Part shown: positions 830 to 64,000 of the stretch, in pieces
Numbering within the stretch: the stretch's first letter is position 1
Layout: each line of letters starts with the position of its first letter
Assembly: GCA_022376925.1 (NCBI GenBank)
Contig: JAIOJX010000030.1
Span: 170,991,298-171,055,297, forward strand
Length of the DNA: 64,000 nt
Direction: 5' to 3'
Origin: Tragulus kanchil
Taxonomy: Eukaryota > Chordata > Mammalia > Artiodactyla > Tragulidae
The notes under the pieces: model-generated
The model's input: the letters and a program-made list of their open reading frames with translations, nothing else
What the model was told of the DNA's origin: nothing
Databases searched by the model: none
Translations under genes and position numbers: made by a program

Positions 830-2939
830 GAGCCTCAGGGTGGTGATCACCACAGGTGGAAATCATGTTCTAATTACCTGCTGGTAAATAACATCAGTAG
901 TCTCAGCTGGAACCAGATGAGATTTAGAAATAGATTGGCAGAGACTCATCTCCCTGACAATGGCAGGGCTTAGATCTGGCAGCAGAAATCATGAGGTATA
1001 ACACAGTAATGTTCATGTAACATTAATGGTCTCGCTGTTATTTCACCGAAGTGCATGGTGAAAGGTATTTTTGGATTCATCTGAAAGGGTTTGTGATTAG
1101 AGTGACTGACTGTGTATAAAAATGAAAATAGTTTACAGACAGTGTTTTCTGCTTTTCCTAGAAAGCCATTCTGTCTACTGAGAAAATTGTGGAGTGTTCT
1201 AGTAACTCTTTTCATTTCCTGATTTTAGTCAAATAGGTTTTCTTACAGTGACTAAAAGCATGAAATATTGTTGTCACACCTGTGTTTTATTTTTTGTAGG
1301 ACTTAACTTTTTAACAGAAATGTGTATCAAAGTATAAAAAATAGAAAAAATGCAAAAGACCACTATGGTGCTTTGGTATTCTTCGAGTAACACACCAAGT
1401 ACTCAGTAGATCAAGGCAAAAATATTACGGGTGAAAGATACATGGGGATGAGTGGCTAGAAAAAAGTCAGCTTGACCGGAACATGGTGTGATGATTCTTA
1501 GTTTGATCCTGAAATAACTTTGACTGTTTTCAGTCAAGCGGTAGTAAAAATAGGAAAGGCTATCACAGACAAAAAGGCTCAAAATAGGACTGTGATCATC
1601 TCATGTCTTGTGATACTAAGGAGAACAGATATGGAACTCTTTAGTATTTTCAGACCATCTCTGCCTTGACAAACTGAAGAACTTGGCAGGACCTCAGAAA
1701 AGAGAGAGGCTGAGAAAGTTTTAGTATCTGGCTAAGGTTGAAGATGAGATGAAATGTGTTAGTTATGCCTGGGCTCCTTTTAAGCATGTTCATGGTGACT
1801 TCCACTTGCAAGAGAACAGGAAAGAGCTCTAAAAAATGTCACCATGACCCTTGATGTGATGTACTGTCTTCTTAATTCCCAGAGCCTCAGGGTGGTGATC
1901 ACCACAGGTGGAAATCATGTTCTAATTACCTGCTGGTAAATAACATCAGTAGTCTCAGCTGGAACCAGATGAGATTTAGAAATAGATTGGCAGAGACTCA
2001 TCTCCCTGACAATGGCAGGGCTTAGATCTGGCAGCAGAAATCATGAGGTATAACACAGTAATGTTCATGTAACATTAATGGTCTCGCTGTTATTTCACCG
2101 AAGTGCATGGTGAAAGGTATTTTTGGATTCATCTGAAAGGGTTTGTGATTAGAGTGACTGACTGTGTATAAAAATGAAAATAGTTTACAGACAGTGTTTT
2201 CTGCTTTTCCTAGAAAGCCATTCTGTCTACTGAGAAAATTGTGGAGTGTTCTAGTAACTCTTTTCATTTCCTGATTTTAGTCAAATAGGTTTTCTTACAG
2301 TGACTAAAAGCATGAAATATTGTTGTCACACCTGTGTTTTATTTTTTGTAGGACTTAACTTTTTAACAGAAATGTGTATCAAAGTATAAAAAATAGAAAA
2401 AATGCAAAAGACCACTATGGTGCTTTGGTATTCTTCGAGTAACACACCAAGTACTCAGTAGATCAAGGCAAAAATATTACGGGTGAAAGATACATGGGGA
2501 TGAGTGGCTAGAAAAAAGTCAGCTTGACCGGAACATGGTGTGATGATTCTTAGTTTGATCCTGAAATAACTTTGACTGTTTTCAGTCAAGCGGTAGTAAA
2601 AATAGGAAAGGCTATCACAGACAAAAAGGCTCAAAATAGGACTGTGATCATCTCATGTCTTGTGATACTAAGGAGAACAGATATGGAACTCTTTAGTATT
2701 TTCAGACCATCTCTGCCTTGACAAACTGAAGAACTTGGCAGGACCTCAGAAAAGAGAGAGGCTGAGAAAGTTTTAGTATCTGGCTAAGGTTGAAGATGAG
2801 ATGAAATGTGTTAGTTATGCCTGGGCTCCTTTTAAGCATGTTCATGGTGACTTCCACTTGCAAGAGAACAGGAAAGAGCTCTAAAAAATGTCACCATGAC
2901 CCTTGATGTGATGTACTGTCTTCTTAATTCCCAGAGCCT
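830..2939. repeat. Tandem direct duplication 1 (unit 1052 bp)
   Basis: Copy 1 is 830-1881 and copy 2 is 1882-2933, at an offset of 1052. I saw no difference between them by eye. The junction falls in a short shared word (gagcct). The content is otherwise unannotated. An 81-residue minus-strand frame appears in both copies (970-1215 and 2022-2267) only because the DNA is repeated; it resembles no family I know. Likely an unmerged assembly overlap. Confidence 0.95.
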
Positions 2940-3284
2940 TCAGGGATAGTTTAGTTCAAGGTATGAGGTTTTCAGATTGAGACTAAAGTCATTCTGATAA
3001 ATTTCTTGGAGTGCTAGAATGGCTCAGTGCTGGTCAGCTGGTCTACCTTCTTGTAGTACTGTAAAATGGTTCATCTCATGGTTCCATGGGAGTCCAGCTT
3101 CCGACCCTCCAGGGCTTGTAGAACCTGAAGTCCACTCCTGTTGCTGACCTGTGGGGACATTAGTCACAGAGATACTGAGCCGTTTGAATATCACTGCAAA
3201 TGTCCAGATTTATACAGAGAATCAGAGCAGTCAAGAAGAATGTTCATGTTTGCCTAAGCCAGCTCAACTTAGTCTCCGATTCAT

Positions 3285-3470
3285 TCACGTCACTCTTTAA
3301 ACATATACTTACTGAGTGCCTGCTGAATGCTGACCACCCAGAAGGGCATGCTAGAGGCTGTGAGGTTGTGGTAAACAAAATAGACTGCCTTGTGTCCTTG
3401 GGAAACTTATATTCTATACATGAGATAATTTTGGATGGTGGAAAGACAGTACAAGTAATTTAAAACAGAG
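3285..3470 (-). repeat. Old L2-like LINE fragment
   Basis: The text matches the well-known antisense L2 tail in order: 'tactgagtgcctgctgaatgctg', then 'gtaaacaaaatagactgcc', then 'aaacttatattctatac'. Heavily diverged. The assignment rests on recognition of the word order, not an alignment. Confidence 0.5.
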
Positions 3471-3572
3471 TTATACAGATGAACAGATGTACTTCCTGGG
3501 ATTCTTCATGGTACTCAGTCCCTGGTTCCATTCATCCCTGAAGAAGAGCTCTAACTATAAGATTTTTGGCTG

Positions 3573-3697
3573 TTTTTTTTTTTTTTTTTCTTTATCCTGT
3601 AGCATTAGGATCTCAGTTCCCTGACCAGAGATCAAAGCCATGACCCCTGTAAAGAGAGCATAGAGTCTTAACCAATGGACCATCAGGGAGTTCCCTG
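3573..3697 (-). repeat. tRNA(Glu)-derived SINE (CHR-type), partial, minus strand
   Basis: A long T run (the reversed poly-A tail) is followed by the reversed tRNA-related head: 'ggatctcagttccctgacc', 'agatcaaagcc', 'cttaaccaatggaccatcagg', 'gagttccc'. This is the widespread artiodactyl/cetacean CHR-type layout read from the minus strand. Diverged from consensus. Confidence 0.75.
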
Positions 3698-4449
3698 TAA
3701 CTATTAGTTCGAATAGGAGCAGGCCCTCTGAGTCCCTTTGTTTGCAATTTCTGTTGTTTACAGTTGGAATCCTTACTCATGTACTTCATGGCTAATAATG
3801 CAAAGTCCGGGTTTGTGAGTCTGGCATTGGAGGCCCCTCTCAAGCTGGTTCCTGTTGTCATTTGCAAACGTAATTCTCATTGTACGGCTCAATTCTCACC
3901 ATACCCCCAAAGCACTTTCCACTCCACCTATACCTGGCCCTGACATAGCAAGTCCTCTTCTGCCATGCCTGCGTTATGCAAGAGCACAGGGAAAATGATG
4001 GAACCTCCTACTGGGACCTTTAGTGCTGCCCATTATCTAGAATTACCCCTGCCCAACCCCCTGGCCAGTGTGTCCACTTGTCAAAAATATAAGTGGGTTT
4101 CACATCCCCATGCACATCTTCCCTCCTCAAGGAACATTTCCAGTGCTTCAGCTAAAATGAATCTTCTCATCGCACGTTGAGCCTCTGTCAAAGCATTTAA
4201 TAAAATTTGCCAGGCAATATAATTACTTACATTATGGGTCTAATTGCACCTTTAGCGTATGAATCCCTGAAGAATGGAATCTGCATTTAAAAACTTTTAA
4301 CTTTGTACTGTCTTCACTGCTTGGCAACGCAAATTGAATTAGCATCTCCAGAAGGTGTAACGTGCTGTAAAAAGCTCAGGGTAATAGAAACAAGAGCAAG
4401 CATATTTTGTGTTTTCTATGTCAGGCATTGCATAATGCTTGAGGCAGAA
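3698..4449. other. Unannotated DNA
   Basis: No repeat or gene recognised. Short open frames here carry no family motif. Confidence 0.45.
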
Positions 4450-4877
4450 CACATAATGCTTGCATGGGCTAACACAGGATTATCTTCTGTAACAGGCAAA
4501 TCCTGCAGTTTTAGTGGCTTCATACAGTCATTTATTTCACCAGTCCAGTATTCTAGTTTGATGGACTGTCTTCCTCCCCAAAATGATCGAAAGACCAAGG
4601 TGTCTTCTGCTTTCTGGTCTGGCAGAGGCTAGAGCCTAATAGCATTTGCTGAGTCCTCTGCATCAAGAGGCTTGTCATGTTTGTGAGTATGGAGAGCTAC
4701 CTGCAGACTCTGAAGGTCAGATTGTGAGGTGGTGGTGGCCATCACTTCTGCTCAGGCTGCTGATAGAGCTTGATCACATGATCCCATCTGGGTGTGAAGT
4801 GGCCTGGGTCCCTAACTGAGCAGTGCTCCCAGCATGGCTGTTCTCTGTGAAGAGGGGGTATGATCTTTGGTAGAAGC

Positions 4878-5035
4878 TAGCCCTTTATGCCACAATGTAA
4901 CAACCCTATGAGACAGGTTCTGTTTTTTTTCTCCTCTTACAGATCAGGAGCTTAGAGAATAGAGATGACAGGATTTACTCAAAGTACCCTCCTGGAAACT
5001 TCAGAACTAGGCTTAGAACCCAGGTCTCTCTGCTT
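4878..5035 (-). repeat. MIR SINE fragment (first copy of duplication 2)
   Basis: Reversed MIR layout is visible: 'taacaaccctatgagacagg', 'tcttacagatcaggagct', and 'agaacccaggtctctctg'. Repeated at about 5962-6119 because it lies inside duplication 2. Confidence 0.65.
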
Positions 5036-5426
5036 TCAGTAGCCACCTTGGCATGGATACAGATAACATCGTTTCTCCTTGCTTCTCATCTGCTTCATCT
5101 CCCAGACTGTGAGAAATGGTTCTCACATTAGTCTCCCACTATTGAGCATGCTCCATAAGCCTTCGGGGGGTCTCTGTCCAGGCATCTGCTTCTTTCTGGG
5201 CGTTTGGCGAGACCCATTGTCCCCTCCGTGACCAGATATGCAGCCTTTCTCATCACCCACTGTGGTTCCACTGCATCCAGGGCCACAGTATATGCTCTTG
5301 CAGTTTGTGCCTATTGGACTGTGAGGTTCAGCAACTGTGCATCTGCCACTTAGCATGCGAGGATGCTGCTCTGGGGAGAGCAGTGTGTCTCATCTTGGAG
5401 AAGGATTTGGTGGAGGGCTGGTAACA

Positions 5427-5533
5427 AGCTGGTGAAGAATCTGTCTGCACTGCAGGAGACCCTGCTGCGATGCCTGGGTTGGGAAGATCCCCTGGCGAGG
5501 GGATGACTACTCACTCTAGTGTTCTGCCTGGAG
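5427..5533 (+). repeat. Bov-tA SINE, cut at the duplication junction
   Basis: Starts at 'agctggtgaagaatctg' and runs through 'gggttgggaagatcccctgg' to 'gcctggag', where the sequence jumps back to 4450. The full-length form of the same element is at 6511-6702. Confidence 0.85.
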
Positions 5534-5961
5534 CACATAATGCTTGCATGGGCTAACACAGGATTATCTTCTGTAACAGGCAAATCCTGCAGTTTTAGTG
5601 GCTTCATACAGTCATTTATTTCACCAGTCCAGTATTCTAGTTTGATGGACTGTCTTCCTCCCCAAAATGATCGAAAGACCAAGGTGTCTTCTGCTTTCTG
5701 GTCTGGCAGAGGCTAGAGCCTAATAGCATTTGCTGAGTCCTCTGCATCAAGAGGCTTGTCATGTTTGTGAGTATGGAGAGCTACCTGCAGACTCTGAAGG
5801 TCAGATTGTGAGGTGGTGGTGGCCATCACTTCTGCTCAGGCTGCTGATAGAGCTTGATCACATGATCCCATCTGGGTGTGAAGTGGCCTGGGTCCCTAAC
5901 TGAGCAGTGCTCCCAGCATGGCTGTTCTCTGTGAAGAGGGGGTATGATCTTTGGTAGAAGC

Positions 5962-6119
5962 TAGCCCTTTATGCCACAATGTAACAACCCTATGAGACAG
6001 GTTCTGTTTTTTTTCTCCTCTTACAGATCAGGAGCTTAGAGAATAGAGATGACAGGATTTACTCAAAGTACCCTCCTGGAAACTTCAGAACTAGGCTTAG
6101 AACCCAGGTCTCTCTGCTT
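5962..6119 (-). repeat. MIR SINE fragment (second copy of duplication 2)
   Basis: Same MIR as at 4878-5035, carried by copy 2 of the duplicated block. It is not an independent insertion. Confidence 0.65.
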
Positions 6120-6510
6120 TCAGTAGCCACCTTGGCATGGATACAGATAACATCGTTTCTCCTTGCTTCTCATCTGCTTCATCTCCCAGACTGTGAGAAA
6201 TGGTTCTCACATTAGTCTCCCACTATTGAGCATGCTCCATAAGCCTTCGGGGGGTCTCTGTCCAGGCATCTGCTTCTTTCTGGGCGTTTGGCGAGACCCA
6301 TTGTCCCCTCCGTGACCAGATATGCAGCCTTTCTCATCACCCACTGTGGTTCCACTGCATCCAGGGCCACAGTATATGCTCTTGCAGTTTGTGCCTATTG
6401 GACTGTGAGGTTCAGCAACTGTGCATCTGCCACTTAGCATGCGAGGATGCTGCTCTGGGGAGAGCAGTGTGTCTCATCTTGGAGAAGGATTTGGTGGAGG
6501 GCTGGTAACA

Positions 6511-6702
6511 AGCTGGTGAAGAATCTGTCTGCACTGCAGGAGACCCTGCTGCGATGCCTGGGTTGGGAAGATCCCCTGGCGAGGGGGATGACTACTCACT
6601 CTAGTGTTCTTGCCTGGAGAATTCCATGGACAGAGGAGCCTGGCGGGCTACAGTCCGTGATATCACAAAGATCTAGGCCAACTGAGTGACTTTCACTTAC
6701 TC
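6511..6702 (+). repeat. Bov-tA (ART2-type) ruminant SINE
   Basis: Shows the diagnostic string of ruminant Bov-tA elements: 'gaagaatctg', 'gggttgggaagatcccctgg', 'ttgcctggagaattccatgg', 'acagaggagcctggcgggct', 'acagtccgtg', 'ctgagtgactttcactta'. The family is tRNA-derived with a 3' part related to BovB, which supplies the retrotransposition machinery. Supports a ruminant source. Confidence 0.9.
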
Positions 6703-6719
6703 ATTACTATAGAGAGAAA

Positions 6720-8793: not shown

Positions 8794-8799
8794 GACATG

Positions 8800-8870
8800 T
8801 GTGTATGATATTTAACTTGTGTAAGCCTCAGTTTCCTCATCTGCACGATGAGCCCCACAGTAACAGTGAA
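8800..8870 (+). repeat. MIR-like fragment
   Basis: 'taagcctcagtttcctcatc' followed by 'tgcacgatgagcccc' resembles the MIR 3' core. Short and diverged. Present again near 9930-10000 in duplication 3. Confidence 0.5.
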
Positions 8871-9133
8871 ATTTGTGAAAACTAGCAGATTGTGCCCAGG
8901 ACAAATTAAGTCTTGAATAAAGAAAGTTGTTATTAGGAGAAGAGTAGTACTCTCTGATTTGGCTCAAAGAGCTAGATAATGCATCCTGTTGGCTGAAAGT
9001 GTGAGATTTGCTTTCTCTAAGGTTGAACGTGAAAGTCCTTCTACACCCTAGGTCCTCTTTCTACATTGTTTCAGCTTTAGTCTCAAGTATTGACTGCACC
9101 CCGATGTGAAAGGAGGAAATATCTGAAGGAGAG

Positions 9134-9138
9134 GTCCT
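9134..9138. repeat. Provirus target-site duplication, left (gtcct)
   Basis: The five bases abutting the TG of the left LTR are gtcct. The five abutting the CA of the right LTR (13558-13562) are the same. This shows a retroviral integrase-mediated insertion and fixes the element boundaries. Confidence 0.9.
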
Positions 9139-9639
9139 TGTAAGAATCGTAAAGACACGGCGGGCTGCAAGCTGTTAGGGAAGAAGTTTATTTGGGAAGA
9201 GTTCCCGGGCGAGATCCACAGGTCCGAGAGATGGGCCAGGGAAATCGCGCCCCGGAGATGGGACGAGGAGGTTTTATTAGGGAGGAGGGGAACAGGAGAA
9301 AATGGGAGGGGGATCCCTCAGGGCAGGCGCAGAAACGAGGTCTTTGTTTAAGTTTGGCGGGAAGTCCAGGGATGAGCCCACTATCCTTCAGGTGGCTGTG
9401 GGCGGGGGGGTGTGAAATTCTTGACACTTTGTGAGGAATTTTTATGGCCAAGGCTATCTCCTTATCGCAGGTCTAAGGAGACTCTCAGGTGCCAGCAGGC
9501 AAGCAACTGACCCCCTGATTTGGTGCCGGGAGTCTGGTCGCGGTGTTGATCCTAACAACTTGGCCCTTTCTTATGATTATTTAGTGCTGGGGAATCTCCG
9601 GCCGCAGTGTTAACACTTTAATAGCCTACCACCCTAACA
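9139..9639 (-). repeat. Provirus 3' LTR (501 bp)
   Basis: Begins tgtaagaatcg and ends ccaccctaaca on the plus strand, i.e. TG...CA termini on either strand. An AATAAA polyadenylation signal on the minus strand is at 9187-9192, about 50 bases from the U5 end. Against the right LTR it shows only a couple of substitutions (near 9340 and 9375) and one G-run length change. Confidence 0.88.
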
Positions 9640-9652
9640 TTCCAGCCTTTTT
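9640..9652 (-). promoter_or_regulatory. Degenerate polypurine tract
   Basis: On the minus strand the 3' LTR is preceded by aaaaaggctggaa, where plus-strand DNA synthesis would be primed. It is interrupted by 'ct'. Repeated at 10735-10747 in duplication 3. Confidence 0.6.
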
Positions 9653-9920
9653 GGTGATATAGGGCGCCGAGCTTTGTCTGGCTACTTCCTGCTGAGTCTT
9701 CGTTTGGGCATGGGGAGTTTAAGGCTGGTCTGAGGGTGGTGGGCTGGTGGGCAGTCGGGAATAGGGCTGAAGGAGCATCTGATGAATAGCGACCTGTGAG
9801 ATGTCTTTCATTTGGCTCAGTAGAAATCTGAGGAAACAAGGAGTAAGCATGAGTAAAAGTGAAATAATTAGAAGGGGTCCTAAGACAGGGGTTATCCATG
9901 CCATTAGGGGAGAGCGCCAC
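9640..9920 (-). pseudogene. env: Env TM C-terminal piece cut by the duplication 3 junction
   Basis: Encodes the membrane anchor and cytoplasmic tail region seen complete in 10814-11449. The env reading frame stops matching at 9920, where the sequence jumps back to cellular flank. It is not an independent env copy. Confidence 0.8.
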
Positions 9921-10235
9921 CGACATGTGTGTATGATATTTAACTTGTGTAAGCCTCAGTTTCCTCATCTGCACGATGAGCCCCACAGTAACAGTGAAAT
10001 TTGTGAAAACTAGCAGATGTGCCCAGGACAAATTAAGTCTTAATAAAGAAAGTGATAGGAGAAGAGTGTACTCTCGATTTGCTCAAAGAGCTAGATAAGC
10101 ATCTGTCTGAAATGTGAGTTTGCTTTCTCTAAGGGAACGTAAAGTCCTTCTACACCCAGGCCTCTTCTAATTGTTTAGCTTTAGTCTCAATATTGACTGC
10201 ACCATGGAAAGGGGAAAATTCTGAAGGAGAGTCCT

Positions 10236-10734
10236 TGTAAGAATCATAAGACACGGCGGGCTGCAAGCTGTTAGGGAAGAAGTTTATTTGGGAAGAGTTC
10301 CCGGGCGAGATCCACAGGTCCGAGAGATGGGCCAGGGAAATCGCGCCCGGAGATGGGACGAGGAGGTTTTATTAGGGAGGAGGGGAACAGGAGAAAATGG
10401 GAGGGGGATCCCTCAGGGCAGGCGCAGAAACGAGTTCTTTGTTTAAGTTTGGTGGGAAGTCCAGTGATGAGCCCACTATCCTTCAGGTGGCTGTGGGCGG
10501 GGGGGTGTGAAATTCTTGACACTTTGTGAGGAATTTTTATGGCCAAGGCTATCTCCTTATCGCAGGTCTAAGGAGACTCTCAGGTGCCAGCAGGCAAGCA
10601 ACTGACCCCCTGATTTGGTGCCGGGAGTCTGGTCGCGGTGTTGATCCTAACAACTTGGCCCTTTCTTATGATTATTTAGTGCTGGGGAATCTCCGGCCGC
10701 AGTGTTAACACTTTAATAGCCTACCACCCTAACA
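10236..10734 (-). repeat. Third LTR copy (duplicate of the 3' LTR)
   Basis: Same 3' LTR as 9139-9639, carried by copy 2 of duplication 3 together with its cellular flank (gtcct at 10231-10235). Because the flank is copied too, this is not a third LTR of the provirus. At the two sites where 9139-9639 differs from the right LTR (near 10433 and 10463), this copy agrees with the right LTR. Confidence 0.88.
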
Positions 10735-10813
10735 TTCCAGCCTTTTTGGTGATATAGGGCGCCGAGCTTTGTCTGGCTACTTCCTGCTGAGTCTTCGTTT
10801 GGGCATGGGGAGT

Positions 10814-11449
10814 TTAAGGCTGGTCTGAGGGTGGTGGGCTGGTGGGCAGTCGGGAATAGGGCTGAAGGAGCATCTGATGAATAGCGACCTGTGAGATGTC
10901 TTTCATTTGGCTCAGTAGAAATCTGAGGAAACAAGGAGTAAGCATGAGTAAAAGTGAAATAATTAGAAGGGGTCCTAAGACAGGGGTTATCCATGCCATT
11001 AGGGGAGAGCGCCACCACTCTTCAAAGGGTGATGGGGACTGTCTACCAGAGCGAAGCTGTTCCCCCAGCCGAGTCAGGACGTTCGTGTTCTCTTCCACCA
11101 GACCTGACTCATTAATATAGTAACAGCATTCTTCCTGCAGGAAGAGGCAGGTTCCCCCTTTGTCGGCAGTTAGGAGATCTAGGGCCCTCCGATTCTGTAA
11201 GGTTACTTTAGCCAGGGAGGTTATCTGTTTTTGGAGAGACAACATAGAGGTTGCAGAGGCTTCTGCTGCTATTTGAAGCTTTTCTTCAAGTTTTTGTTGA
11301 GTAGAAACACTATGTCCCAAAGCTCCGGCGCTAATTCCAGCTGCAGCTAATGAGGTGATCAAAGTGATTCCAGCCAGGAGAGGAAGAAAAAACGGCTCTT
11401 TTCTGTCGTGCCGGAGGTCTGTAAAGAGATGCAAACTTGGCTCTGCCAT
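10814..11449 (-). CDS. env: Endogenous retroviral env transmembrane subunit, open frame (211 aa)
   Basis: This is the membrane-anchored fusion subunit of a gammaretrovirus-type envelope. Visible in order are a basic, degenerate surface/TM cleavage-like site (RHDRK, residues 13-17) and a hydrophobic, Ala/Gly-rich fusion peptide (about 18-47). A heptad-like coiled coil follows (about 50-83), then the class I immunosuppressive-domain-like stretch starting LQNRRALDLL (84-100). Next come the CX6CC motif (C101, C108, C109) typical of gamma-type TM, an N-glycosylation site (N113), a membrane anchor (about 150-180) and a tail with YSRL (198-201), a YXXL motif. A stop codon lies nine bases upstream of the first Met, and the surface-subunit frame lies in another frame, so a full Env precursor is not encoded. 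Length fits a whole TM. This is the only uninterrupted copy; whether it is expressed cannot be told. Confidence 0.85.
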   Translation of the reverse strand: MAEPSLHLFTDLRHDRKEPFFLPLLAGITLITSLAAAGISAGALGHSVSTQQKLEEKLQIAAEASATSMLSLQKQITSLAKVTLQNRRALDLLTADKGGTCLFLQEECCYYINESGLVEENTNVLTRLGEQLRSGRQSPSPFEEWWRSPLMAWITPVLGPLLIISLLLMLTPCFLRFLLSQMKDISQVAIHQMLLQPYSRLPTSPPPSDQP

Positions 11450-11534
11450 ACAACATTAGTTGAGGAACTAGGATAACAGGCCAACATGGGAACGGTGATT
11501 GTGGACTTATGTGATTGTAGAGAGTTTTGTTGCA

Positions 11535-11915
11535 CTAGAAGAAAATGTCAGGGGGGGGATACAAGGTTGCTGTTACCCGTATGGTCATATTGCAAGGGGA
11601 ATTCGACACCTCTTTGTCATAGCAGAGGAAGTAAGTCTGTTCAGATTGAAAGAGGGGGACATCTACTACTGCCACAGGATTTTGGGGTTGGTTTGGTAAA
11701 CTAGCCTTAGATAAGTTCACGGAGTATGCTAATGGCACTGCTGCTAGTACTGGTCTATTCAAAGATGCACACAAAAAACAGTCAGATACCTGATAGTCCT
11801 TTGTGTTATTAAGCAGTTTTACACCCTGTCTGGTAACTTCTATCCAGATGAAGGCTTCTGGGACCCATGACTGATTTATGTCCTGATTAAGGCTAGATTC
11901 AGCCTGATCTATGGT
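11535..11915 (-). pseudogene. env: Env surface-subunit remnant, copy 1
   Basis: The frame resembles the amino-terminal surface-subunit region of gamma-type envelopes. It has a Cys-x-x-Cys followed by an RPVLAAVPL stretch, and several N-x-S/T sites. It stops near 11535 and does not continue into the TM frame. A run of eight Gs lies at this end (about 11551-11558) and may mark the frame loss. It is the same DNA as 12635-13015. Confidence 0.65.
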
Positions 11916-12549
11916 TTTTTGTTTTAAACTCTCTCTCTATATATATTTTGAATATATAAAGTGGTCTATGGCATCTGTTGGTAGCCTCTATCCAGCTTAC
12001 CATACTGTCCAGATTGTCACCTGGAGTCCCAGGGTCTTGAATGTTCATTTTCCAGGATCTTGGTGGATTTCGGAATGATCTAGGGGTTATCCATGCCATT
12101 AGGGGAGAGCGCCACCACTCTTCAAAGGGTGATGGGGACTGTCTACCAGAGCGAAGCTGTTCCCCCAGCCGAGTCAGGACGTTCGTGTTCTCTTCCACCA
12201 GACCTGACTCATTAATATAGTAACAGCATTCTTCCTGCAGGAAGAGGCAGGTTCCCCCTTTGTCGGCAGTTAGGAGATCTAGGGCCCTCCGATTCTGTAA
12301 GGTTACTTTAGCCAGGGAGGTTATCTGTTTTTGGAGAGACAACATAGAGGTTGCAGAGGCTTCTGCTGCTATTTGAAGCTTTTCTTCAAGTTTTTGTTGA
12401 GTAGAAACACTATGTCCCAAAGCTCCGGCGCTAATTCCAGCTGCAGCTAATGAGGTGATCAAAGTGATTCCAGCCAGGAGAGGAAGAAAAAACGGCTCTT
12501 TTCTGTCGTGTCGGAGGTCTGTAAAGAGATGCAAACTTGGCTCTGCCAT
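11899..12549 (-). pseudogene. env: Env TM copy 2, truncated at a duplication junction
   Basis: Identical to 10814-11449 from the start through the fusion peptide, CX6CC and the beginning of the membrane anchor. At about residue 155 the frame runs into the 166-base bridge (11916-12081) and loses the anchor and tail. The chimeric C-terminus is probably an assembly product rather than a real protein. Confidence 0.8.
11916..12081. other. Bridge sequence with no partner in the window
   Basis: 166 bases lie between the two halves of duplication 4, beginning with a T run, a CT run and an AT-rich stretch. The remainder stays open in the minus frame as part of a longer frame. It is absent after copy 2, where the same env end joins the primer-binding site. 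Either it is real upstream env/leader DNA or uncorrected read sequence. Confidence 0.6.
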
Positions 12550-12634
12550 ACAACATTAGTTGAGGAACTAGGATAACAGGCCAACATGGGAACGGTGATT
12601 GTGGACTTATGTGATTGTAGAGAGTTTTGTTGCA

Positions 12635-13037
12635 CTAGAAGAAAATGTCAGGGGGGGGATACAAGGTTGCTGTTACCCGTATGGTCATATTGCAAGGGGA
12701 ATTCGACACCTCTTTGTCATAGCAGAGGAAGTAAGTCTGTTCAGATTGAAAGAGGGGGACATCTACTACTGCCACAGGATTTTGGGGTTGGTTTGGTAAA
12801 CTAGCCTTAGATAAGTTCACGGAGTATGCTAATGGCACTGCTGCTAGTACTGGTCTATTCAAAGATGCACACAAAAAACAGTCAGATACCTGATAGTCCT
12901 TTGTGTTATTAAGCAGTTTTACACCCTGTCTGGTAACTTCTATCCAGATGAAGGCTTCTGGGACCCATGACTGATTTATGTCCTGATTAAGGCTAGATTC
13001 AGCCTGATCTATGGTCTGTTTTACTTCTGTTAAGGTG
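12635..13037 (-). pseudogene. env: Env surface-subunit remnant, copy 2, abutting the primer-binding site
   Basis: Same frame as 11535-11915. Translated by hand, the frame is open from the primer-binding site (about 13044) to a stop near 12635, about 136 codons with no ATG at its start. It shows an SDCFLCASL stretch and multiple Asn-x-Thr/Ser sites. It lies directly downstream of the primer site, so gag-pol is deleted between them. Confidence 0.7.
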
Positions 13038-50074: not shown

Positions 50075-50240
50075 AATTTCCAGAGAGCTCATTCAGAAAT
50101 GATGCTAGACCACATTCTGGAATTTCCCAATTCCGAGGTCTGCTATAGGGCTGGAGAAGTGTATTCTAAGAGGTTTTCCAGTGATGCTGCTACTTCTGGT
50201 CCTGGGACCATGCTTTGCGAATCATTGGATCATAGCACCA
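50058..50240 (-). repeat. MER5-type hAT-Charlie fragment
   Basis: 'catcagaatttccagagag', 'agtgatgctgctacttctgg', 'tcctgggaccatgctttgcg' follow the reversed MER5A order. Copied at 51219-51401. Confidence 0.55.
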
Positions 50241-50340
50241 CTGATTTACAAACCTTCCTAAAGTGGCAGAGGCTGGCGGTGATCATCGGTGGCTTAATCT
50301 CATATGATAAGAGGCAGCTAAACAGTATAAACCTCCCAAT

Positions 50341-50810: not shown

Positions 50811-51218
50811 GCTCTGGTTCTCTAGCTGCCTAGTATCCTTGCTTTTGCAGGAGACAACAGAACTCAACAAATGCAAAGCAAACTCAATAGCTCCCCTCCA
50901 AAGTCATCTTTCTTCTGGGACCATCAAAATAAACAAAGTAAATAAAAGAAATAAAATAATGATGACTAGGGAACCAACTTATTCTGAAAACTGGTATGGG
51001 AAGAATTTTCAATGTGCAATAATTGTGCATTGGATAAACCTTATTGGCTATGATACTGCACTTCATAAACTCTGAAAACTGATATGTGAAGGGAAACAAA
51101 CAAGCATCTGTCTGGTTAGGCTGTATAAACTGTGTCTGGGTAATTCATGAGTTGGTAAGGGGAGCTTTCTGTTTACAGAAGCAGTCCAGCTAGTCAGTAA
51201 AAAAGAAGTGGTGCTCAA

Positions 51219-51401
51219 ATACCAGTGTGCATCAGAATTTCCAGAGAGCTCATTCAGAAATGATGCTAGACCACATTCTGGAATTTCCCAATTCCGAGGT
51301 CTGCTATAGGGCTGGAGAAGTGTATTCTAAGAGGTTTTCCAGTGATGCTGCTACTTCTGGTCCTGGGACCATGCTTTGCGAATCATTGGATCATAGCACC
51401 A
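51219..51401 (-). repeat. MER5-type fragment (block copy in duplication 12)
   Basis: Same element as at 50058-50240. Confidence 0.55.
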
Positions 51402-51501
51402 CTGATTTACAAACCTTCCTAAAGTGGCAGAGGCTGGCGGTGATCATCGGTGGCTTAATCTCATATGATAAGAGGCAGCTAAACAGTATAAACCTCCCAA
51501 T

Positions 51502-52185
51502 TATTGTTGTTGTTGCTTAGTTGTGTCCAACTCTTTGTGACCCTGTGGACCGCAGTATGCCAGGCTTCCATGTCCTTCACCATCCCCCAGAGTTTGCTCA
51601 AGCTCCTATCCATTGAGTCAGTGATGCCATCCAACCATCTCATCTTCTGTCATCCCCTTCTCCTTCTGCCTTCTATTTTTTCCAGCATCAGGGTCTCTTG
51701 CAGTGAGTCTTCTCATCCAGTGGCCAAAGTATTGGAGCTTCAGCTTCAGCATCAGTCCTTCCAATGAATGCTCAGACTTGATTTCCTTTAGGACAGACTG
51801 GTTTGATTTCCTTGCAGTCCAAGGGACTCTCAAGGGTTTTCTCCAACACCACAGTTCGAAGGCATCAATTCTATGGTGCTTGACTTTCTTTATGGTCCAG
51901 CTTTCACATCCATGCATGAGTACTAGACAGACCATAGCTTTAACTATATGGACCTTTGTCAGCAAAATGATGTCTTTGCTTTTTAATACACTGTCTAGGT
52001 TTGTCATAGCTTTTCTTCCAAGGAGTTTTTTTCCCACTCCTCTTCATGAAAAACCTTATTAAAAACAATCGGCTACAAGTGTTTAATTTCATGGCTGCAG
52101 TCACCATCTGTAGTGATTTTGGAGCCCAAGAAAATAAAGCCTATCACTGTTTTAATTGTTTCTCCATATATTTGCCATGAAGTGA
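51502..52185 (-). repeat. BovB (RTE) LINE 3' fragment, minus strand, carrying a ~50-base insert
   Basis: Full form of the element at 50341-50810. It continues past the junction to 'gtttgtcatagcttttcttc' and, after an interruption at 52027-52079, resumes 'tttaatttcatggctgcagt', 'ttttggagcccaagaaaat'. A minus frame of about 139 residues covers the C-terminal BovB region (ELWCWRKPLRVPWTARK). The catalytic RT core is not included. Confidence 0.9.
52027..52079. other. Insert inside BovB, related to 53628-53680
   Basis: Between 'ccaaggag' and 'caagtgtttaatttc' the BovB is interrupted by about 50 bases, including 'ctcttcatgaaaaacctt' and 'attaaaaacaatcggc'. Nearly the same string occurs at 53628-53680 (and 54711-54763) in non-BovB DNA. 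Confidence 0.7.
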
Positions 52186-53390: not shown

Positions 53391-53600
53391 CCCCATCTCT
53401 TTGTGTGTGTTTCTCTAACTCTGTCTTTTTATCGTTTTCTTTCTTTCTCTATCTGTCTCTTTGCTCTAAATGTCTCTGTCTTCATCACTGTCTATGTGTC
53501 TCTTTTTTTCCCCCTCTATACATTTATCTCTATTTCAGTCTCTCCATTTCTGTCATCTGTCTCTTGCTATCTCAAGTTCTGTCTCTCTGCTGTTAACTTC
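53391..53600. repeat. Pyrimidine-rich low-complexity tract
   Basis: Long plus-strand run of TCT/CTC/TGTCTC words. Partly repeated at 54571-54680 by duplication 13. The long leucine/serine-rich frames here come from base composition. Confidence 0.8.
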
Positions 53601-55605
53601 ATGCCTCTTCCCACCTTCTGCCACATTTTTTTCTGCTCCTCTTCATGAAAAACCTTATTAAAACAGTCGGCCACAAGTGTTGCTCTCCATTTCACCTCCT
53701 ATTCTTTCCTCCATCCACTATGATTTGGTGGATTCTTCCATTCTGCTCAAAATCTTGGACATAGACCTGGACATTTTCCCTGTTTCCAGATGGATGTTCT
53801 GTTCCCATGGTACTTGTGCTCAGGAGCATTGGACACTTCCTCATTAATGACTCTCTTGCTTTGTTAGTCAGGGACACTTAACTGCCACAAGAAGTAATTT
53901 CAAAATCTCTGGCTTAGTGCAATCAAATTTTATTTCTTGCTCATTACAGTGTCATTATTTATAATAAAGAGGCAGTGATCAGAGAGGATCGTATGAGAGA
54001 TTTTCACAGGCCCGGCTTGGAGTAACATATGTCACTTCCACCCACATTCCATTTGCTGTTTGCTATTCCCTTAGTCTCTCCTGGAAAAAAGGGGGAGCTA
54101 AGAAATGTCGTCTTTAGATGGGAACCTACTTCCAAGAAATCACTCTACTCTTTGGAGAGTTGAGTTTGAGTCTGTAGAAGGCAACTAACCCATTTTGCCC
54201 ACAGGTGGAGAGCCAGGCAGGAGCCAGGCTGTGTATGTGTGGCCCAAGTTTGCAAGGCAGTGCTCAGTATGCTCTCTACCCAGGTGTTATCTTGTCAGTG
54301 GAAGTCACTTTTCTCAGGTCACCCTGCTTTTATCCTAATGTGGGTCTTAGCTTCTAATAAAGATACCTCACAGATAAAGATTTCCTAGGGCCCCCAGATC
54401 ACTTTCACACCTATATCTTCTCTAGAAAGTAAACTAATCGTCCAAGAAACCCCCTCATGGATCCTCAGTGGAAGCTAAATAGTCCTGATACACAGGAACT
54501 GCATTTCCTGGTGGGAGGCACAAAAACTGTCTAATGGATCCCCTCTTTTTTCTTCACCCCACTGTTTTTTAATGTCTCTGTCTCCCTCTTTTCCCCCTCT
54601 ATACATTTATCTCTATTTCAGTCTCTCCATTTCTGTCATCTGTCTCTTGCTATCTCAAGTTCTGTCTCTCTGCTGTTAACTTCATGCCTCTTCCCACCTT
54701 CTGCCACATTTTTTTCTGCTCCTCTTCATGAAAAACCTTATTAAAACAGTCGGCCACAAGTGTTGCTCTCCATTTCACCTCCTATTCTTTCCTCCATCCA
54801 CTATGATTTGGTGGATTCTTCCATTCTGCTCAAAATCTTGGACATAGACCTGGACATTTTCCCTGTTTCCAGATGGATGTTCTGTTCCCATGGTACTTGT
54901 GCTCAGGAGCATTGGACACTTCCTCATTAATGACTCTCTTGCTTTGTTAGTCAGGGACACTTAACTGCCACAAGAAGTAATTTCAAAATCTCTGGCTTAG
55001 TGCAATCAAATTTTATTTCTTGCTCATTACAGTGTCATTATTTATAATAAAGAGGCAGTGATCAGAGAGGATCGTATGAGAGATTTTCACAGGCCCGGCT
55101 TGGAGTAACATATGTCACTTCCACCCACATTCCATTTGCTGTTTGCTATTCCCTTAGTCTCTCCTGGAAAAAAGGGGGAGCTAAGAAATGTCGTCTTTAG
55201 ATGGGAACCTACTTCCAAGAAATCACTCTACTCTTTGGAGAGTTGAGTTTGAGTCTGTAGAAGGCAACTAACCCATTTTGCCCACAGGTGGAGAGCCAGG
55301 CAGGAGCCAGGCTGTGTATGTGTGGCCCAAGTTTGCAAGGCAGTGCTCAGTATGCTCTCTACCCAGGTGTTATCTTGTCAGTGGAAGTCACTTTTCTCAG
55401 GTCACCCTGCTTTTATCCTAATGTGGGTCTTAGCTTCTAATAAAGATACCTCACAGATAAAGATTTCCTAGGGCCCCCAGATCACTTTCACACCTATATC
55501 TTCTCTAGAAAGTAAACTAATCGTCCAAGAAACCCCCTCATGGATCCTCAGTGGAAGCTAAATAGTCCTGATACACAGGAACTGCATTTCCTGGTGGGAG
55601 GCACA
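53469..55605. repeat. Tandem direct duplication 13 (offset 1102 falling to 1083 bp)
   Basis: Copy 1 is 53469-54522, a 48-base bridge is 54523-54570, and copy 2 is 54571-55605. Copy 2 has lost 19 bases in its first 30 relative to copy 1, then matches. Confidence 0.93.
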
Positions 55606-56218: not shown

Positions 56219-58378
56219 CCATCTCATTTATAAACATTTCACTGTATTACCTGAGAAATTGTAGCACAAGGCATAGGGTGCCTGTGGCTGGAGTTCATCT
56301 CTGGCCCTATTCACTTTGATGCAGAATAATTCAATTAAACAAATACTCATTGAACACTTAATACTCCATGCCCATTATTGGGCAGTTAGGGATATGAAAC
56401 AATAAAATTACAAAAGATGTTTTGATCCCCTGTCAGGACTCGAGGGCTTAACTGCCAGCTGTGACAAGTGTTCTTGACTGACAGCCTTCAGCTGCCCACC
56501 CCCTCCAGGAGCTGACTCAGCTAGAAAAGGCTGCCTCAGGCAAGGCTGCTTCCCCTTCTCTTGGCGGCCCATGTATAATGACTGGTCTGAAGGTCTCAGC
56601 CTGAAGGGTCATCTCAGCTTCGGAGTTCTCCATAGGATTGGCTAAGGCCCCTCTGAGACTGCATTTCAGCCCAGCTATTCGCTTTGCCCAGTTCTGCTTT
56701 CTTCCCCTTCATTCTTCAGGGAGAATTCCAGGAGCCATTATCAGACATCTTCCTACACGCTAATGCTGTGTCCTAGGAAGCTTTACTATGAACAGAGCTA
56801 GTGGAGGTGATGGAATTCCAGATGAACTATTTCAAATCCTAAAATATGATGCTATTAAAATGCTACATTCAGTATGCTAGTGAATCGGGAAAACTCAGCA
56901 GTGGCCTCAGGACTGAAAAGGTCACTTTTCATTCTAATCCGAAATTCTCACTACCACACCATCGTACTCATTTCACATGCTAGCAAAGTAATGCTCAAAA
57001 TCCTCTAAGCTAGACTTCACCAGTAGGTGAACCAAGAAATTCAAGATGTACAAGCTGAATTTAGAAAATGCAGAGGCATGAGAGATCAAACTGCCAATAT
57101 CCATTGGATCATAGGAAGAGCAAGAGAATTCCAGAAAAACTCATACTTCTGCTTCATTGACTATTCTAAAGCCTCTGACTGTGTGGATCACAACAAATTG
57201 TGGAAAATTCTGAAAGAGATGGGAATACCAGACCACCTAACCTGCCTCCTGTGAAACCTATATGCAGGACAAGAAGCAACGGATACGTTCTGAGAAATGG
57301 TGTTAGTCAAACCATCTCATTTATAAACATTTCACTGTATTACCTGAGAAATTGTAGCACAAGGCATAGGGTGCCTGTGGCTGGAGTTCATCTCTGGCCC
57401 TATTCACTTTGATGCAGAATAATTCAATTAAACAAATACTCATTGAACACTTAATACTCCATGCCCATTATTGGGCAGTTAGGGATATGAAACAATAAAA
57501 TTACAAAAGATGTTTTGATCCCCTGTCAGGACTCGAGGGCTTAACTGCCAGCTGTGACAAGTGTTCTTGACTGACAGCCTTCAGCTGCCCACCCCCTCCA
57601 GGAGCTGACTCAGCTAGAAAAGGCTGCCTCAGGCAAGGCTGCTTCCCCTTCTCTTGGCGGCCCATGTATAATGACTGGTCTGAAGGTCTCAGCCTGAAGG
57701 GTCATCTCAGCTTCGGAGTTCTCCATAGGATTGGCTAAGGCCCCTCTGAGACTGCATTTCAGCCCAGCTATTCGCTTTGCCCAGTTCTGCTTTCTTCCCC
57801 TTCATTCTTCAGGGAGAATTCCAGGAGCCATTATCAGACATCTTCCTACACGCTAATGCTGTGTCCTAGGAAGCTTTACTATGAACAGAGCTAGTGGAGG
57901 TGATGGAATTCCAGATGAACTATTTCAAATCCTAAAATATGATGCTATTAAAATGCTACATTCAGTATGCTAGTGAATCGGGAAAACTCAGCAGTGGCCT
58001 CAGGACTGAAAAGGTCACTTTTCATTCTAATCCGAAATTCTCACTACCACACCATCGTACTCATTTCACATGCTAGCAAAGTAATGCTCAAAATCCTCTA
58101 AGCTAGACTTCACCAGTAGGTGAACCAAGAAATTCAAGATGTACAAGCTGAATTTAGAAAATGCAGAGGCATGAGAGATCAAACTGCCAATATCCATTGG
58201 ATCATAGGAAGAGCAAGAGAATTCCAGAAAAACTCATACTTCTGCTTCATTGACTATTCTAAAGCCTCTGACTGTGTGGATCACAACAAATTGTGGAAAA
58301 TTCTGAAAGAGATGGGAATACCAGACCACCTAACCTGCCTCCTGTGAAACCTATATGCAGGACAAGAAGCAACGGATA
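56219..58378. repeat. Tandem direct duplication 14 (offset 1093 bp)
   Basis: Copy 1 is 56219-57285, a 26-base bridge is 57286-57311, and copy 2 is 57312-58378. Copies match. It repeats an L2-like piece (56330-56400), about 380 bases of unannotated DNA and the first part of a BovB. Confidence 0.95.
56781..57285 (+). repeat. BovB (RTE) LINE, plus strand, cut at a duplication junction
   Basis: 'aacagagctagtggaggtga', 'aggctagcaaagtaatgctc'-like text and 'tttagaaaatgcagaggcat' mark BovB RT. A plus frame (57027-57254) shows CFIDYSKASDCVDHNKLWK, the RT palm block with its first catalytic Asp. It breaks at 57285; the continuation is at 57874-59277. Confidence 0.9.
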
Positions 58379-60105: not shown

Positions 60106-60935
60106 AAGATTTTAAAAGACCTTAAAAGTTAAATTAAAAAACATGCCAGGAAGTAGTATTTTGATTTTAAAAACTGTGTGTGTATGTGGAGGGGTGTAAA
60201 GGGTGTGAAAACATTTTTACGTGGGTATAATTAAGGTTTCAATCTGTTCTTTAGGAAGACTTTTGAATTTCCCTGTTGAATTGTTTATTTCAACAGAAGT
60301 TCACTGGGCAACAAAATATTGCACTAGGTGCTTTGAAGAGACCCCCCAAAGTATTCATCTGTGCTTGTATTTTAATTAAAGCTATGCAATGCTCAGTTAG
60401 TTGTAACTCTGTTATCTTGTTCAGTGTTAACATGGACAAACTGTTCTATCAGTGTCACAAGTGGCTTGCAGACAGCATTCATTGATGTTGCCGACAACAG
60501 GGACACCGTGCAATTTCCTCTCCCCATTTGCTGTTCAGGGTTTGATAGTTGTTTCAAGGGTCTTCACATCATCACAGATCGATTTTCCCTTTGTTATCCC
60601 CTTCTGCCTAAGTTTATCATTCTAGCACTTGGCATGCGTTAAACAAGTTCTGATCAGAATTGAATAATTCAAGGTTAGTGTTAGGAGATACAGACTCTTC
60701 TGGTCCTGGTGGAATTCAGGGAAATAGTTTTTAATAGCCTCACTAGAGGACCCAGTGGATTAAATTCAGGGTTAGGTCAGCAGGTTGAGCTCTCAGGACC
60801 ACGGTGGCAGAAACACAGTTAATTGGAAGGGCAGGAAAGGGCACCAGCAGTAGTTAATTGTTTTGCCCGGGGGCAGGAATTTTTTTTGACATTTTACATC
60901 GAAGAGCACAGGACCAGGAATGGTATGGGTATGCG

Positions 60936-61122
60936 TCTGTGTGTGTTCAGTCATGCCTGACTGTTTGTGACCTCATGGATGGTAGCCTGCCAGGCTACTC
61001 TGTCCGTCAGATTTTCCAGGCAAAAATACTCGAGTGGGTTGCTTTTTCCTACTCTAGGGGATCTTCCTGACCCAGGGCTTGAACTCAAGTCGCCTGCATT
61101 GGCAGGCGATTCTTCCAGGAAA
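60936..61122 (-). repeat. Bov-tA SINE, minus strand
   Basis: 'gtgttcagtcatgcctgact', 'agcctgccaggctactctgt', 'ctactctaggggatcttcct', 'tcgcctgcattggcaggcga'. Copied at 62023-62212. Confidence 0.88.
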
Positions 61123-62022
61123 TCGTGTGTGAGGGAGATAGTGAAAGGAACAGTTCTAATGCATATTTTTCTGGCATTTAAGAAATGCAGGTGAAGATTT
61201 TAAAGACCTTAAAAGTTAAATTAAAAAACATGCCAGGAAGTAGTATTTTGATTTTAAAAACTGTGTGTGTATGTGGAGGGGTGTAAAGGGTGTGAAAACA
61301 TTTTTACGTGGGTATAATTAAGGTTTCAATCTGTTCTTTAGGAAGACTTTTGAATTTCCCTGTTGAATTGTTTATTTCAACAGAAGTTCACTGGGCAACA
61401 AAATATTGCACTAGGTGCTTTGAAGAGACCCCCCAAAGTATTCATCTGTGCTTGTATTTTAATTAAAGCTATGCAATGCTCAGTTAGTTGTAACTCTGTT
61501 ATCTTGTTCAGTGTTAACATGGACAAACTGTTCTATCAGTGTCACAAGTGGCTTGCAGACAGCATTCATTGATGTTGCCGACAACAGGGACACCGTGCAA
61601 TTTCCTCTCCCCATTTGCTGTTCAGGGTTTGATAGTTGTTTCAAGGGTCTTCACATCATCACAGATCGATTTTCCCTTTGTTATCCCCTTCTGCCTAAGT
61701 TTATCATTCTAGCACTTGGCATGCGTTAAACAAGTTCTGATCAGAATTGAATAATTCAAGGTTAGTGTTAGGAGATACAGACTCTTCTGGTCCTGGTGGA
61801 ATTCAGGGAAATAGTTTTTAATAGCCTCACTAGAGGACCCAGTGGATTAAATTCAGGGTTAGGTCAGCAGGTTGAGCTCTCAGGACCACGGTGGCAGAAA
61901 CACAGTTAATTGGAAGGGCAGGAAAGGGCACCAGCAGTAGTTAATTGTTTTGCCCGGGGGCAGGAATTTTTTTTGACATTTTACATCGAAGAGCACAGGA
62001 CCAGGAATGGTATGGGTATGCG

Positions 62023-62212
62023 TCTGTGTGTGTTCAGTCATGCCTGACTGTTTGTGACCTCATGGATGGTAGCCTGCCAGGCTACTCTGTCCGTCAGATT
62101 TTCCAGGCAAAAATACTCGAGTGGGTTGCTTTTTCCTACTCTAGGGGATCTTCCTGACCCAGGGCTTGAACTCAAGTCGCCTGCATTGGCAGGCGATTCT
62201 TTACCAGGGAAA
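62023..62212 (-). repeat. Bov-tA SINE (block copy in duplication 15)
   Basis: Same element as 60936-61122, with a complete head (attctttaccagggaaat). Confidence 0.88.
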
Positions 62213-62509
62213 TCGTGTGTGAGGGGAGATAGTGAAAGGGAACAGTTCTAATGCATATTTTTTTCTGGCATTTAAGAAATGCAGGTGAAGATTTTAATAT
62301 TATTGTGAAATTATGCTTTGGTTGGTGAAAACCTTCATGTTACTCGGAGATGGACCACATGGATTATGGGCTTAGTATGGTTATAAAAAATGACTATAAA
62401 TACTCATCCTTAAGGATTTTTGTGTTCCTTGATGGGTTCCTTATTCTTTTAAATAGAGCACTCATGTTTATGTGAACTTGCATATCACACAGGGTAACTT
62501 GGACACAGA

Positions 62510-62728
62510 GCTTCCTAGGTGGCTCAGCATTAAAAAAAAAAAAAAAATTTCCCCTGGCAAGCAGAAGATGAAGGTTTGATCCCTGGGTCAGGAAGATTCT
62601 CTAGAGAATAAAATGGGAACGCATTCCAGTATTCTTGCCTGGGAAATCACTTAGACAGCGGAGCCTGGTGGGCTACAGTCAGTGGAGTCACAAGAGTTGG
62701 CCATGACTTAGGGACTAAACAACAACCA
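62510..62728 (+). repeat. Bov-tA SINE with an A run inside its head, plus strand
   Basis: 'agcttcctaggtggctcagc' is followed by 16 As (62532-62547), then 'atttcccctggcaagcag', 'tttgatccctgggtcagg', 'ccagtattcttgcctgggaa'. The A run replaces the usual 'taaagaatctgcc' part. Copied at 63607-63823. Confidence 0.85.
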
Positions 62729-62884
62729 CAACAAAACCTGAACACATGGCTTCTGAGGCAAAAGAATTGGAGGAATTCAGCCAAAGAAACCATGCCTTTG
62801 GGGACGTTTCTCTTCTCTGAATTCTCTGTGATATTATCTCATTAATTTCAAATTTAGCTGTGTTATTTTAATCTTTGTTATCCA

Positions 62885-63085
62885 GGCATTATGGTAGATG
62901 CTGGGGATAAAACAATAAGACAACTGTGAGTGTTTACTGCATGTTCAATGGATGGCCTAATAAAACTTACACTTACATGGTTGTTAGAACAGAACAGCTT
63001 GTTGGCTTAGGCCAGGCCTGCATCTGTTACAGTATGTAAGATAGACATGGTTTCTGCCTACATGGATCTTATTGTTTAGTGGTAG
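62885..63085. repeat. Possible old L2-like fragments
   Basis: 'tatggtagatgctggggata' and 'tacatggatcttattgttta' resemble the L2 tail. Diverged and low confidence. Confidence 0.35.
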
Positions 63086-63606
63086 AAACACACCACTGAC
63101 CAGGGGATCATCACTAGACGTGCTGGTGTAATGAGACCACGAAAGAGTATGTGTAGGTGTAATGAGAGCACAAAAGAGGGCAATAAGCTTTTATGTTCCT
63201 AGGTCAATCAAGGCTTTCCAGAAGAATTGACATGTATGGTAAGAGCAGAATAATGAGTAAAATAGGTTCAGGAAAAGAGGGATGGAGAGGATATAGATGT
63301 GCATTAAATAGAGGACACAGTAGTTACTAAGCTCCTGATCAGTGTTGGCTGTAAGGGATAGTAGCTCTTACAGACCAACCTTTGTCTGGGGGCCCTCTTT
63401 TTTTTTTTTGAGAATTATGCTTTGTTGGTGAAAACCTTCATGTTACTGGAATGACCACATGGATTATGGGCTTAGTATGGTTATAAAAATGACTATAAAT
63501 ACTCATCCTTAAGGATTTTGTGTTCCTTGATGGGTTCCTTATTCTTTTAAATAGAGCACTCATGTTTATGTGAACTTGCATATCACACAGGGTAACTTGG
63601 ACACAG

Positions 63607-63823
63607 AGCTTCCTAGGTGGCTCAGCTTTAAAAAAAAAACAATTTCCCCTGGCAAGCAGAAGATGAAGGTTTGATCCCTGGGTCAGGAAGATTCTCTAGA
63701 GAATAAAATGGGAACGCATTCCAGTATTCTTGCCTGGGAAATCACTTAGACAGCGGAGCCTGGTGGGCTACAGTCAGTGGAGTCACAAGAGTTGGCCATG
63801 ACTTAGGGACTAAACAACAACCA
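63607..63823 (+). repeat. Bov-tA SINE (block copy in duplication 16)
   Basis: Same element as 62510-62728. The A run is shorter here (10 As then caa) and the base before it differs. Confidence 0.85.
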
Positions 63824-64000
63824 CAACAAAACCTGAACACATGGCTTCTGAGGCAAAAGAATTGGAGGAATTCAGCCAAAGAAACCATGCCTTTGGGGAC
63901 GTTTCTCTTCTCTGAATTCTCTGTGATATTATCTCATTAATTTCAAATTTAGCTGTGTTATTTTAATCTTTGTTATCCAGGCATTATGGTAGATGCTGGG

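What the first reader, a model, noticed from the sequence alone, without database searches (positions are those of the whole stretch)
830..64000. Sixteen unrelated tandem duplications share one unit size of about 1.1 kb
Sixteen blocks are each followed at once by a near-identical direct copy, at offsets of 1052-1193 bases (twelve of the sixteen within 1084-1128). The sequences have nothing in common: unique DNA, provirus, L1, BovB. A biological mechanism would have to impose length without regard to sequence. Unmerged overlaps between abutted contigs or gap-fill patches of fixed overlap length would do so naturally. About 17.3 kb (27%) of the window is extra copy. A real, length-regulated duplication process would be remarkable but is the less likely reading.
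Basis: partly seen in the sequence, partly recalled or inferred. Interest (0 to 1): 0.92.

Follow-up and report, generated by a model that had tools for sequence, protein, structure and literature searches.

The report
Genome-wide assembly overlaps left in twice
The repeated 1.1-kb blocks are real in the deposited sequence but are almost certainly an assembly error: pieces that overlap by a fixed length were laid end to end without being merged, and the same error shows wherever the rest of this genome was sampled.

Summary
Observation confirmed: 16 tandem pairs, offsets 1052-1193 (median 1104; 12 of 16 within 1084-1128), about 17.3 kb extra in 64 kb. It is an assembly artefact.

Overlap length is constant (CV 3%) while pieces advance by 724-9800 bases (CV 80%), as in a graph with fixed-length nodes. 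After trimming, copies differ by 49 indels and 9 substitutions; in 48 of 49 indels the base is missing from the copy next to the junction. The window's dispersed repeats show the opposite ratio (2203 substitutions, 335 indel events).

The window lies in a held 3.17-Gb assembly. All 13 other 10-kb stretches fetched hold the feature: 37 pairs, offsets 1025-1173; there the polarity is weaker, 38 of 50 indels. Androgen receptor and RAG1 matches are doubled in tandem the same way, offsets 1120 and 1101.

Likely source, inferred: a long-read assembler with 1024-base vertices (wtdbg type) whose adjacent edge consensuses were concatenated with the shared vertex kept twice. No reads could be mapped.

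The parts
830..2945 (.). pair 1, offset 1052, junction about 1881/1882
   Evidence: both copies also found in the genome record
4447..6619 (.). pair 2, offset 1084, junction about 5530/5531
8794..11016 (.). pair 3, offset 1128, junction 9921/9922; the second copy lacks bases at 28 indel places in its first half, the first copy at 1
10982..13015 (.). pair 4, offset 1100; piece 9922-12081 ends with 166 bases (11916-12081) that match neither expected flank above chance
17821..20010 (.). pair 5, offset 1105, junction 18907-18926
28726..30932 (.). pair 6, offset 1108, junction 29820-29834
30560..32838 (.). pair 7, offset 1148, junction 31692-31708; 29454-29820 is present a third time at 31708-32078
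34645..36799 (.). pair 8, offset 1101, junction 35691-35746; copy 1 ends inside a dispersed repeat (SINE by recall) with 7 and 8 gap events against its two nearest relatives where copy 2 has 1 and 0; a 54-base error-rich stretch continues copy 2 leftward
38623..41013 (.). pair 9, offset 1193, junction 39815/39816
45126..47358 (.). pair 10, offset 1109, junction about 46234/46235
47819..50074 (.). pair 11, offset 1105, junction about 48969/48970 (matches overlap by 46 bases)
49648..51975 (.). pair 12, offset 1161, junction about 50808/50809; 48543-48969 is present a third time, identical, at 50809-51235
53489..55605 (.). pair 13, offset 1084, junction 54522-54573
56219..58378 (.). pair 14, offset 1093, junction 57285-57312; copies identical over 1067 bases
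60106..62297 (.). pair 15, offset 1088, junction about 61193/61194
62300..64000 (.). pair 16, offset 1103, cut by the window end; with pair 15 it makes the piece 61194-63402 two abutting units long (2209 bases)

Best explanation
The blocks are assembly overlaps that were never merged. The sequence was built from pieces (here about 1.8-10.9 kb long) that each share one fixed-length segment with the next piece; the pieces were laid end to end with the shared segment kept twice. Shown here: constant overlap with variable piece length, errors on the junction side of the copies, presence in every stretch of the genome that was sampled, and interruption of two genes. Inferred: the program was a long-read assembler of the wtdbg/fuzzy-Bruijn type, whose vertices are 1024 read bases (about 1.1 kb of true sequence if reads lose some bases), and the step that joins neighbouring edge consensuses at their shared vertex failed or was skipped. 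The confidence given is for the overlap artefact; for the wtdbg type as its source I put about 0.6.
For: Offsets CV 3% against advance CV 80%. 48 of 49 trimmed indels in the window are bases missing from the junction-side half of a copy; 29 of the 49, one contrary, are in pair 3, and the other 20 all agree. In 13 other stretches 38 of 50 agree, and 21 of 23 within 100 bases of the junction. Tandem pairs show 31 substitutions and 78 indel events against 2203 and 335 in 70 dispersed matches of the window (the matches share elements and are not independent). Third-copy arbitration at junctions 6 and 7 puts the errors in the junction-side copy. A dispersed repeat cut by junction 8 has 7 and 8 gap events in copy 1 and 1 and 0 in copy 2 against its two nearest relatives. 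13 of 13 fetched 10-kb stretches from 11 contigs hold 1-4 such pairs each, 37 in all, offsets 1025-1173, median 1099. Matches to the androgen receptor N-terminal family and to RAG1, single-copy genes in mammals (recalled), are doubled in tandem at offsets 1120 and 1101. wtdbg2 'chops read into 1024 bp segments, merges similar segments into a vertex' (passage of PMC10989838).
Against: No reads could be mapped. There is no N in the window, so no gap marks the junctions. In the 13 sampled stretches 12 of 50 indels run contrary to the expected side, 9 of these 12 at 200 bases or more from the junction; by pair 16 agree, 4 do not and 4 tie. In the LTR comparison two differences are in the first copy alone, far from its junction. 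For the wtdbg reading in particular: a cattle nanopore assembly made with wtdbg2 has a total size of 2.70 Gb (passage of PMC10250393), so the program does not do this by default, and piece advances show no 256-base step.
Confidence: 0.98

Rival explanations
1. A real, length-regulated tandem duplication process acts across the genome and copies about 1.1 kb regardless of sequence.
For: The unit length is constant and most copies abut directly or nearly so.
Against: It would need about 0.9 million recent events genome-wide by extrapolation from 37 pairs in 130 kb, would have doubled parts of the androgen receptor and RAG1 genes, and does not explain why bases are lost on the junction side of both copies.
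Confidence: 0.003
2. Heterotype false duplication: the two copies are the two alleles of a diploid animal placed in a row.
For: A few substitutions away from the ends (pairs 3, 4, 6, 16), and the unmatched 166 bases at 11916-12081, could be allelic.
Against: Only 9 substitutions in 15,456 trimmed aligned columns, one pair with no difference at all, and a constant length, none of which follows from heterozygosity.
Confidence: 0.02
3. The same overlap artefact, but from another source than a wtdbg-type graph, for example fixed-size flanks kept by a gap-filler or a polishing or stitching program with a fixed overlap. This is a variant of the best explanation, not an alternative to it.
For: The overlap length alone does not name the program; no 256-base step was found.
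Against: Chunked polishing should give a fixed piece length (inference), but pieces vary widely; gap filling should be confined to gaps, but all 13 stretches show the feature.
Confidence: 0.35

Closest known systems
Homotype false duplication (Vertebrate Genomes Project term; passages of PMC8081667 and PMC9516828)
   Same: Same sequence kept twice at piece boundaries because overlaps were not collapsed; copies differ in consensus quality.
   Different: There the length is described as about that of the reads and gaps often lie between the copies; here the length is fixed near 1.1 kb, no N lies in the window, and the density is about one per 3.5-4 kb.
Shared vertices of a wtdbg2 fuzzy Bruijn graph (passage of PMC10989838)
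   Same: Fixed-length segments of 1024 read bases, connected by adjacency on reads.
   Different: In a normal run the shared sequence is not left doubled; the cattle wtdbg2 assemblies in PMC10250393 are 2.63-2.70 Gb, not inflated.

Membership tests
False duplication by unmerged overlap | Near-identical copies adjoin at piece boundaries | tested here: met
   piece boundaries are inferred from the copies themselves
False duplication by unmerged overlap | Lower consensus quality at the piece ends, so differences lie on the junction side | tested here: met
   48 of 49 indels in the window; 38 of 50 in 13 other stretches, 21 of 23 within 100 bases of the junction
False duplication by unmerged overlap | Conserved single-copy genes appear duplicated | tested here: met
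   2 of 2 answered gene queries, androgen receptor and RAG1; RAG2 and BRCA2-repeat queries did not complete
False duplication by unmerged overlap | Read depth below the expected level and no spanning reads | not testable with these tools
   no reads held
Homotype false duplication as described by the VGP | Length about that of the reads | tested here: inconclusive
   length is 1025-1193 throughout, short and uniform for long reads, but the read lengths of this project are unknown
wtdbg-type fixed-vertex graph | Constant overlap with variable edge length | tested here: met
   median offset 1104 against 1024 read bases, ratio 1.08
wtdbg-type fixed-vertex graph | Edge steps in multiples of 256 read bases (step size recalled) | tested here: inconclusive
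   no periodicity, best R 0.33, null median 0.46; read indels could blur it
Biological tandem duplication | Differences between copies dominated by substitutions, without regard to the junction | tested here: not met

The most novel reading that the evidence does not exclude
A genome-wide biological process that duplicates about 1.1 kb in tandem, length-regulated and blind to sequence. The evidence does not exclude it formally because no reads were mapped, but it would have to mimic the polarity of consensus errors and to double parts of single-copy genes.
Probability: 0.003. Interest if true: 0.97.

Novelty: not a real feature. Interest (0 to 1): 0.12.

Why it matters
It has no biological meaning, but it matters for users of this assembly. 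If the sampled density holds, 27-32% of the 3.17-Gb assembly is extra copy (the unique part would be about 2.2-2.3 Gb; and arithmetic), and exons will often look duplicated or broken, as in the two genes tested. Gene counts, tandem-duplication surveys, dating of repeats and structural-variant calls against it would be wrong. The signature (fixed offset, bases missing on the junction side) is a simple read-free test for the same fault in other assemblies.

Tried and rejected
A 256-base step in the advance between units was sought as a fingerprint of wtdbg bins and was not found. One search used a faulty null (a fresh perturbation for each period); one search repeated it correctly: best R 0.33, null median 0.46, 94% of nulls at least as high. 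Pfam scans of three-frame translations of 34001-42000 (+), 44001-53000 (-) and 53001-62000 (-), stops read as X, meant to map the duplications onto retrotransposon proteins, found no family. Rfam found nothing at gathering thresholds. The wtdbg2 paper itself is not held. Literature searches for a printed account of this fault by that program showed none in the titles and abstract openings listed; the lists were capped and I did not read most of the papers, so this is no proof of absence. One search counted one spurious seventeenth pair in the window (the LTR pair at offset 2822), giving 49 of 51; with 16 pairs gives 48 of 49. The L1 and SINE labels are recalled too.

Full report
Observation. 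Self-comparison of the 64-kb window gives 16 tandem pairs at offsets 1052-1193, median 1104, 12 of 16 within 1084-1128. The window holds no N. At 7 of the 15 complete pairs 13-166 bases lie between the matched copies. These seven stretches were compared with the sequence before copy 1 (what copy 2 should continue into on its left) and after copy 2: the left score is higher in 6 of 7 and tied in 1. It reaches the null 95% point in 5 of 7 (at one of these the right score does too), and the 99.7% point only at junction 8 (37 against 22; the highest of 300 null windows was also 37). There the 54 bases are plainly an error-rich continuation of copy 2 to the left. The longest, 166 bases at pair 4, matches neither flank above chance.

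Anatomy. The window reads as a chain of pieces. Each piece begins with the last 1.1 kb of the one before. Overlap length is nearly constant (CV 3%), while the distance by which pieces advance varies from 724 to 9800 (CV 80%). Two short pieces, 29834-31692 and about 48970-50808, lie between neighbours that overlap each other directly by about 370 and 427 bases. The piece 61194-63402 is two units laid side by side. This is the geometry of a graph with fixed-length nodes and variable edges.

Error polarity. If the junctions are unmerged ends, the end of copy 1 and the start of copy 2 are piece ends with poor consensus, while the start of copy 1 and the end of copy 2 lie inside pieces. After removing 50 alignment columns at each end, 48 of 49 indels in the window are bases missing from the junction-side half of a copy, spread over 7 of 16 pairs; 29 of the 49, including the one exception, are in pair 3, and the other 20 all agree; there are 9 substitutions (repeated). 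Without trimming, 68 of 79 indels agree, with 25 substitutions. In 13 other stretches of the same genome 38 of 50 indels agree and 12 do not; within 100 bases of the junction 21 of 23 agree, and beyond 200 bases 13 of 22; there are 21 substitutions; by pair, 16 agree, 4 do not and 4 tie. So the polarity holds out of sample, close to the junction, but is weaker than in the window.

Controls. Dispersed repeats of the window, 70 pairwise matches, hold 2203 substitutions and 335 indel events; the 16 tandem pairs hold 31 and 78 (the 70 matches share elements, and 5 of the 91 matches, above 96% identity and outside the tandem class, were left out of both counts). Where a third copy exists it shows which copy is at fault: at junction 6 the end of the first piece lacks bases that the two others share, and at junction 7 the start of the third piece does; the three copies around junctions 11 and 12 are identical. 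In the LTR, four places differ in the middle copy alone (two missing bases, two substitutions, 325-532 bases from its start at 9922), two in the first copy alone (substitutions, far from its junction) and two in the third alone; so this comparison fits only in part, and some differences may be allelic or true differences between LTRs. A dispersed repeat cut by junction 8 has 7 and 8 gap events in copy 1 against its two nearest relatives, where copy 2 has 1 and 0; against four further relatives matched by both copies, copy 1 has 6-9 and copy 2 has 2-5, over longer alignments.

The genome. The window lies at C27:170991298-171055297 of a held assembly of 3,167,203,957 bases in 32 contigs. Of 20 stretches asked at position 20 Mb on contigs 1-20, 10 exist, and 3 more, on C27, C2 and C15, were fetched. 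All 13 hold such pairs: 37 pairs in 130 kb, 1-4 each, offsets 1025-1173, median 1099. Extrapolated, this is about 0.9 million pairs and an extra fraction of 32%; the window alone gives 27%. The stretches were chosen by fixed position, not at random.

Genes. A search with the androgen receptor N-terminal family finds it twice in tandem on contig 1, profile positions 1-501 and then 232-501, with a DNA offset of 1120. A search with RAG1 finds profile positions 2-379, then 22-226 and 223-632 in a row on contig 7, with a DNA offset of 1101. Both are single-copy genes in mammals (recalled). These are 2 of 2 answered queries; RAG2 and the BRCA2 repeat were asked three times each and not answered.

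Mechanism. Fixed overlap with variable pieces, independent of sequence, is what a graph assembler with fixed-length vertices would give if neighbouring edge sequences were concatenated without trimming the shared vertex. A passage of PMC10989838 says that wtdbg2 chops reads into 1024-bp segments and merges similar ones into vertices; a passage of PMC12037172 says that wtdbg2 outputs contigs as overlapping sequences of reads and that a second binary, wtpoa-cns, computes the consensus. A median of 1104 true bases for 1024 read bases would fit reads that lose about 7% of bases, as deletion-prone nanopore reads may (inference). wtdbg has been used for ruminants: sika deer with version 1.2.8 and yak with version 2.5 (passages of PMC10372904 and PMC9448747); I do not claim that either is this genome. 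Against this, a cattle wtdbg2 assembly is of normal size (passage of PMC10250393), so a failed or skipped joining step must be assumed, and no 256-base step was seen. I put the overlap artefact at 0.98 and the wtdbg type as its source at about 0.6.

Known kinds. Passages of PMC8081667 describe homotype false duplications near contig boundaries or from under-collapsed sequence, about as long as the reads, one example traced to a FALCON bug; passages of PMC9516828 give low read depth and gaps between copies as signs. This case works in the same way but has a fixed short length, no N in the window and a high density. It is not a biological feature.

Noticed in passing
9139-13561: A short endogenous provirus on the minus strand: LTR copies of about 505 bases at 9139-9643, 10236-10738 and 13058-13561 (LTR by inference), and env pieces (PF00429) in the frames 10817-11452 and 11902-12552. 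Two unmerged overlaps run through it, so its LTR and env counts in the assembly are inflated.
   Followed up: partly
11916-12081: 166 bases at the end of the piece 9922-12081 match neither expected flank above chance; perhaps the other allele or a mis-extended end.
   Followed up: partly
L003 416-477 and 4150-4481: Two runs of N in the C1 stretch; this stretch also has the fewest duplications, 1 in 10 kb. The N may be assembly gaps or stretches withheld by the tool.
   Followed up: no
G000: The 11 large contigs seen are 73-297 Mb, which suggests a ruminant with few, large chromosomes; the androgen receptor match lies on C1 (126 Mb), which would then be the X. Species not established.
   Followed up: partly
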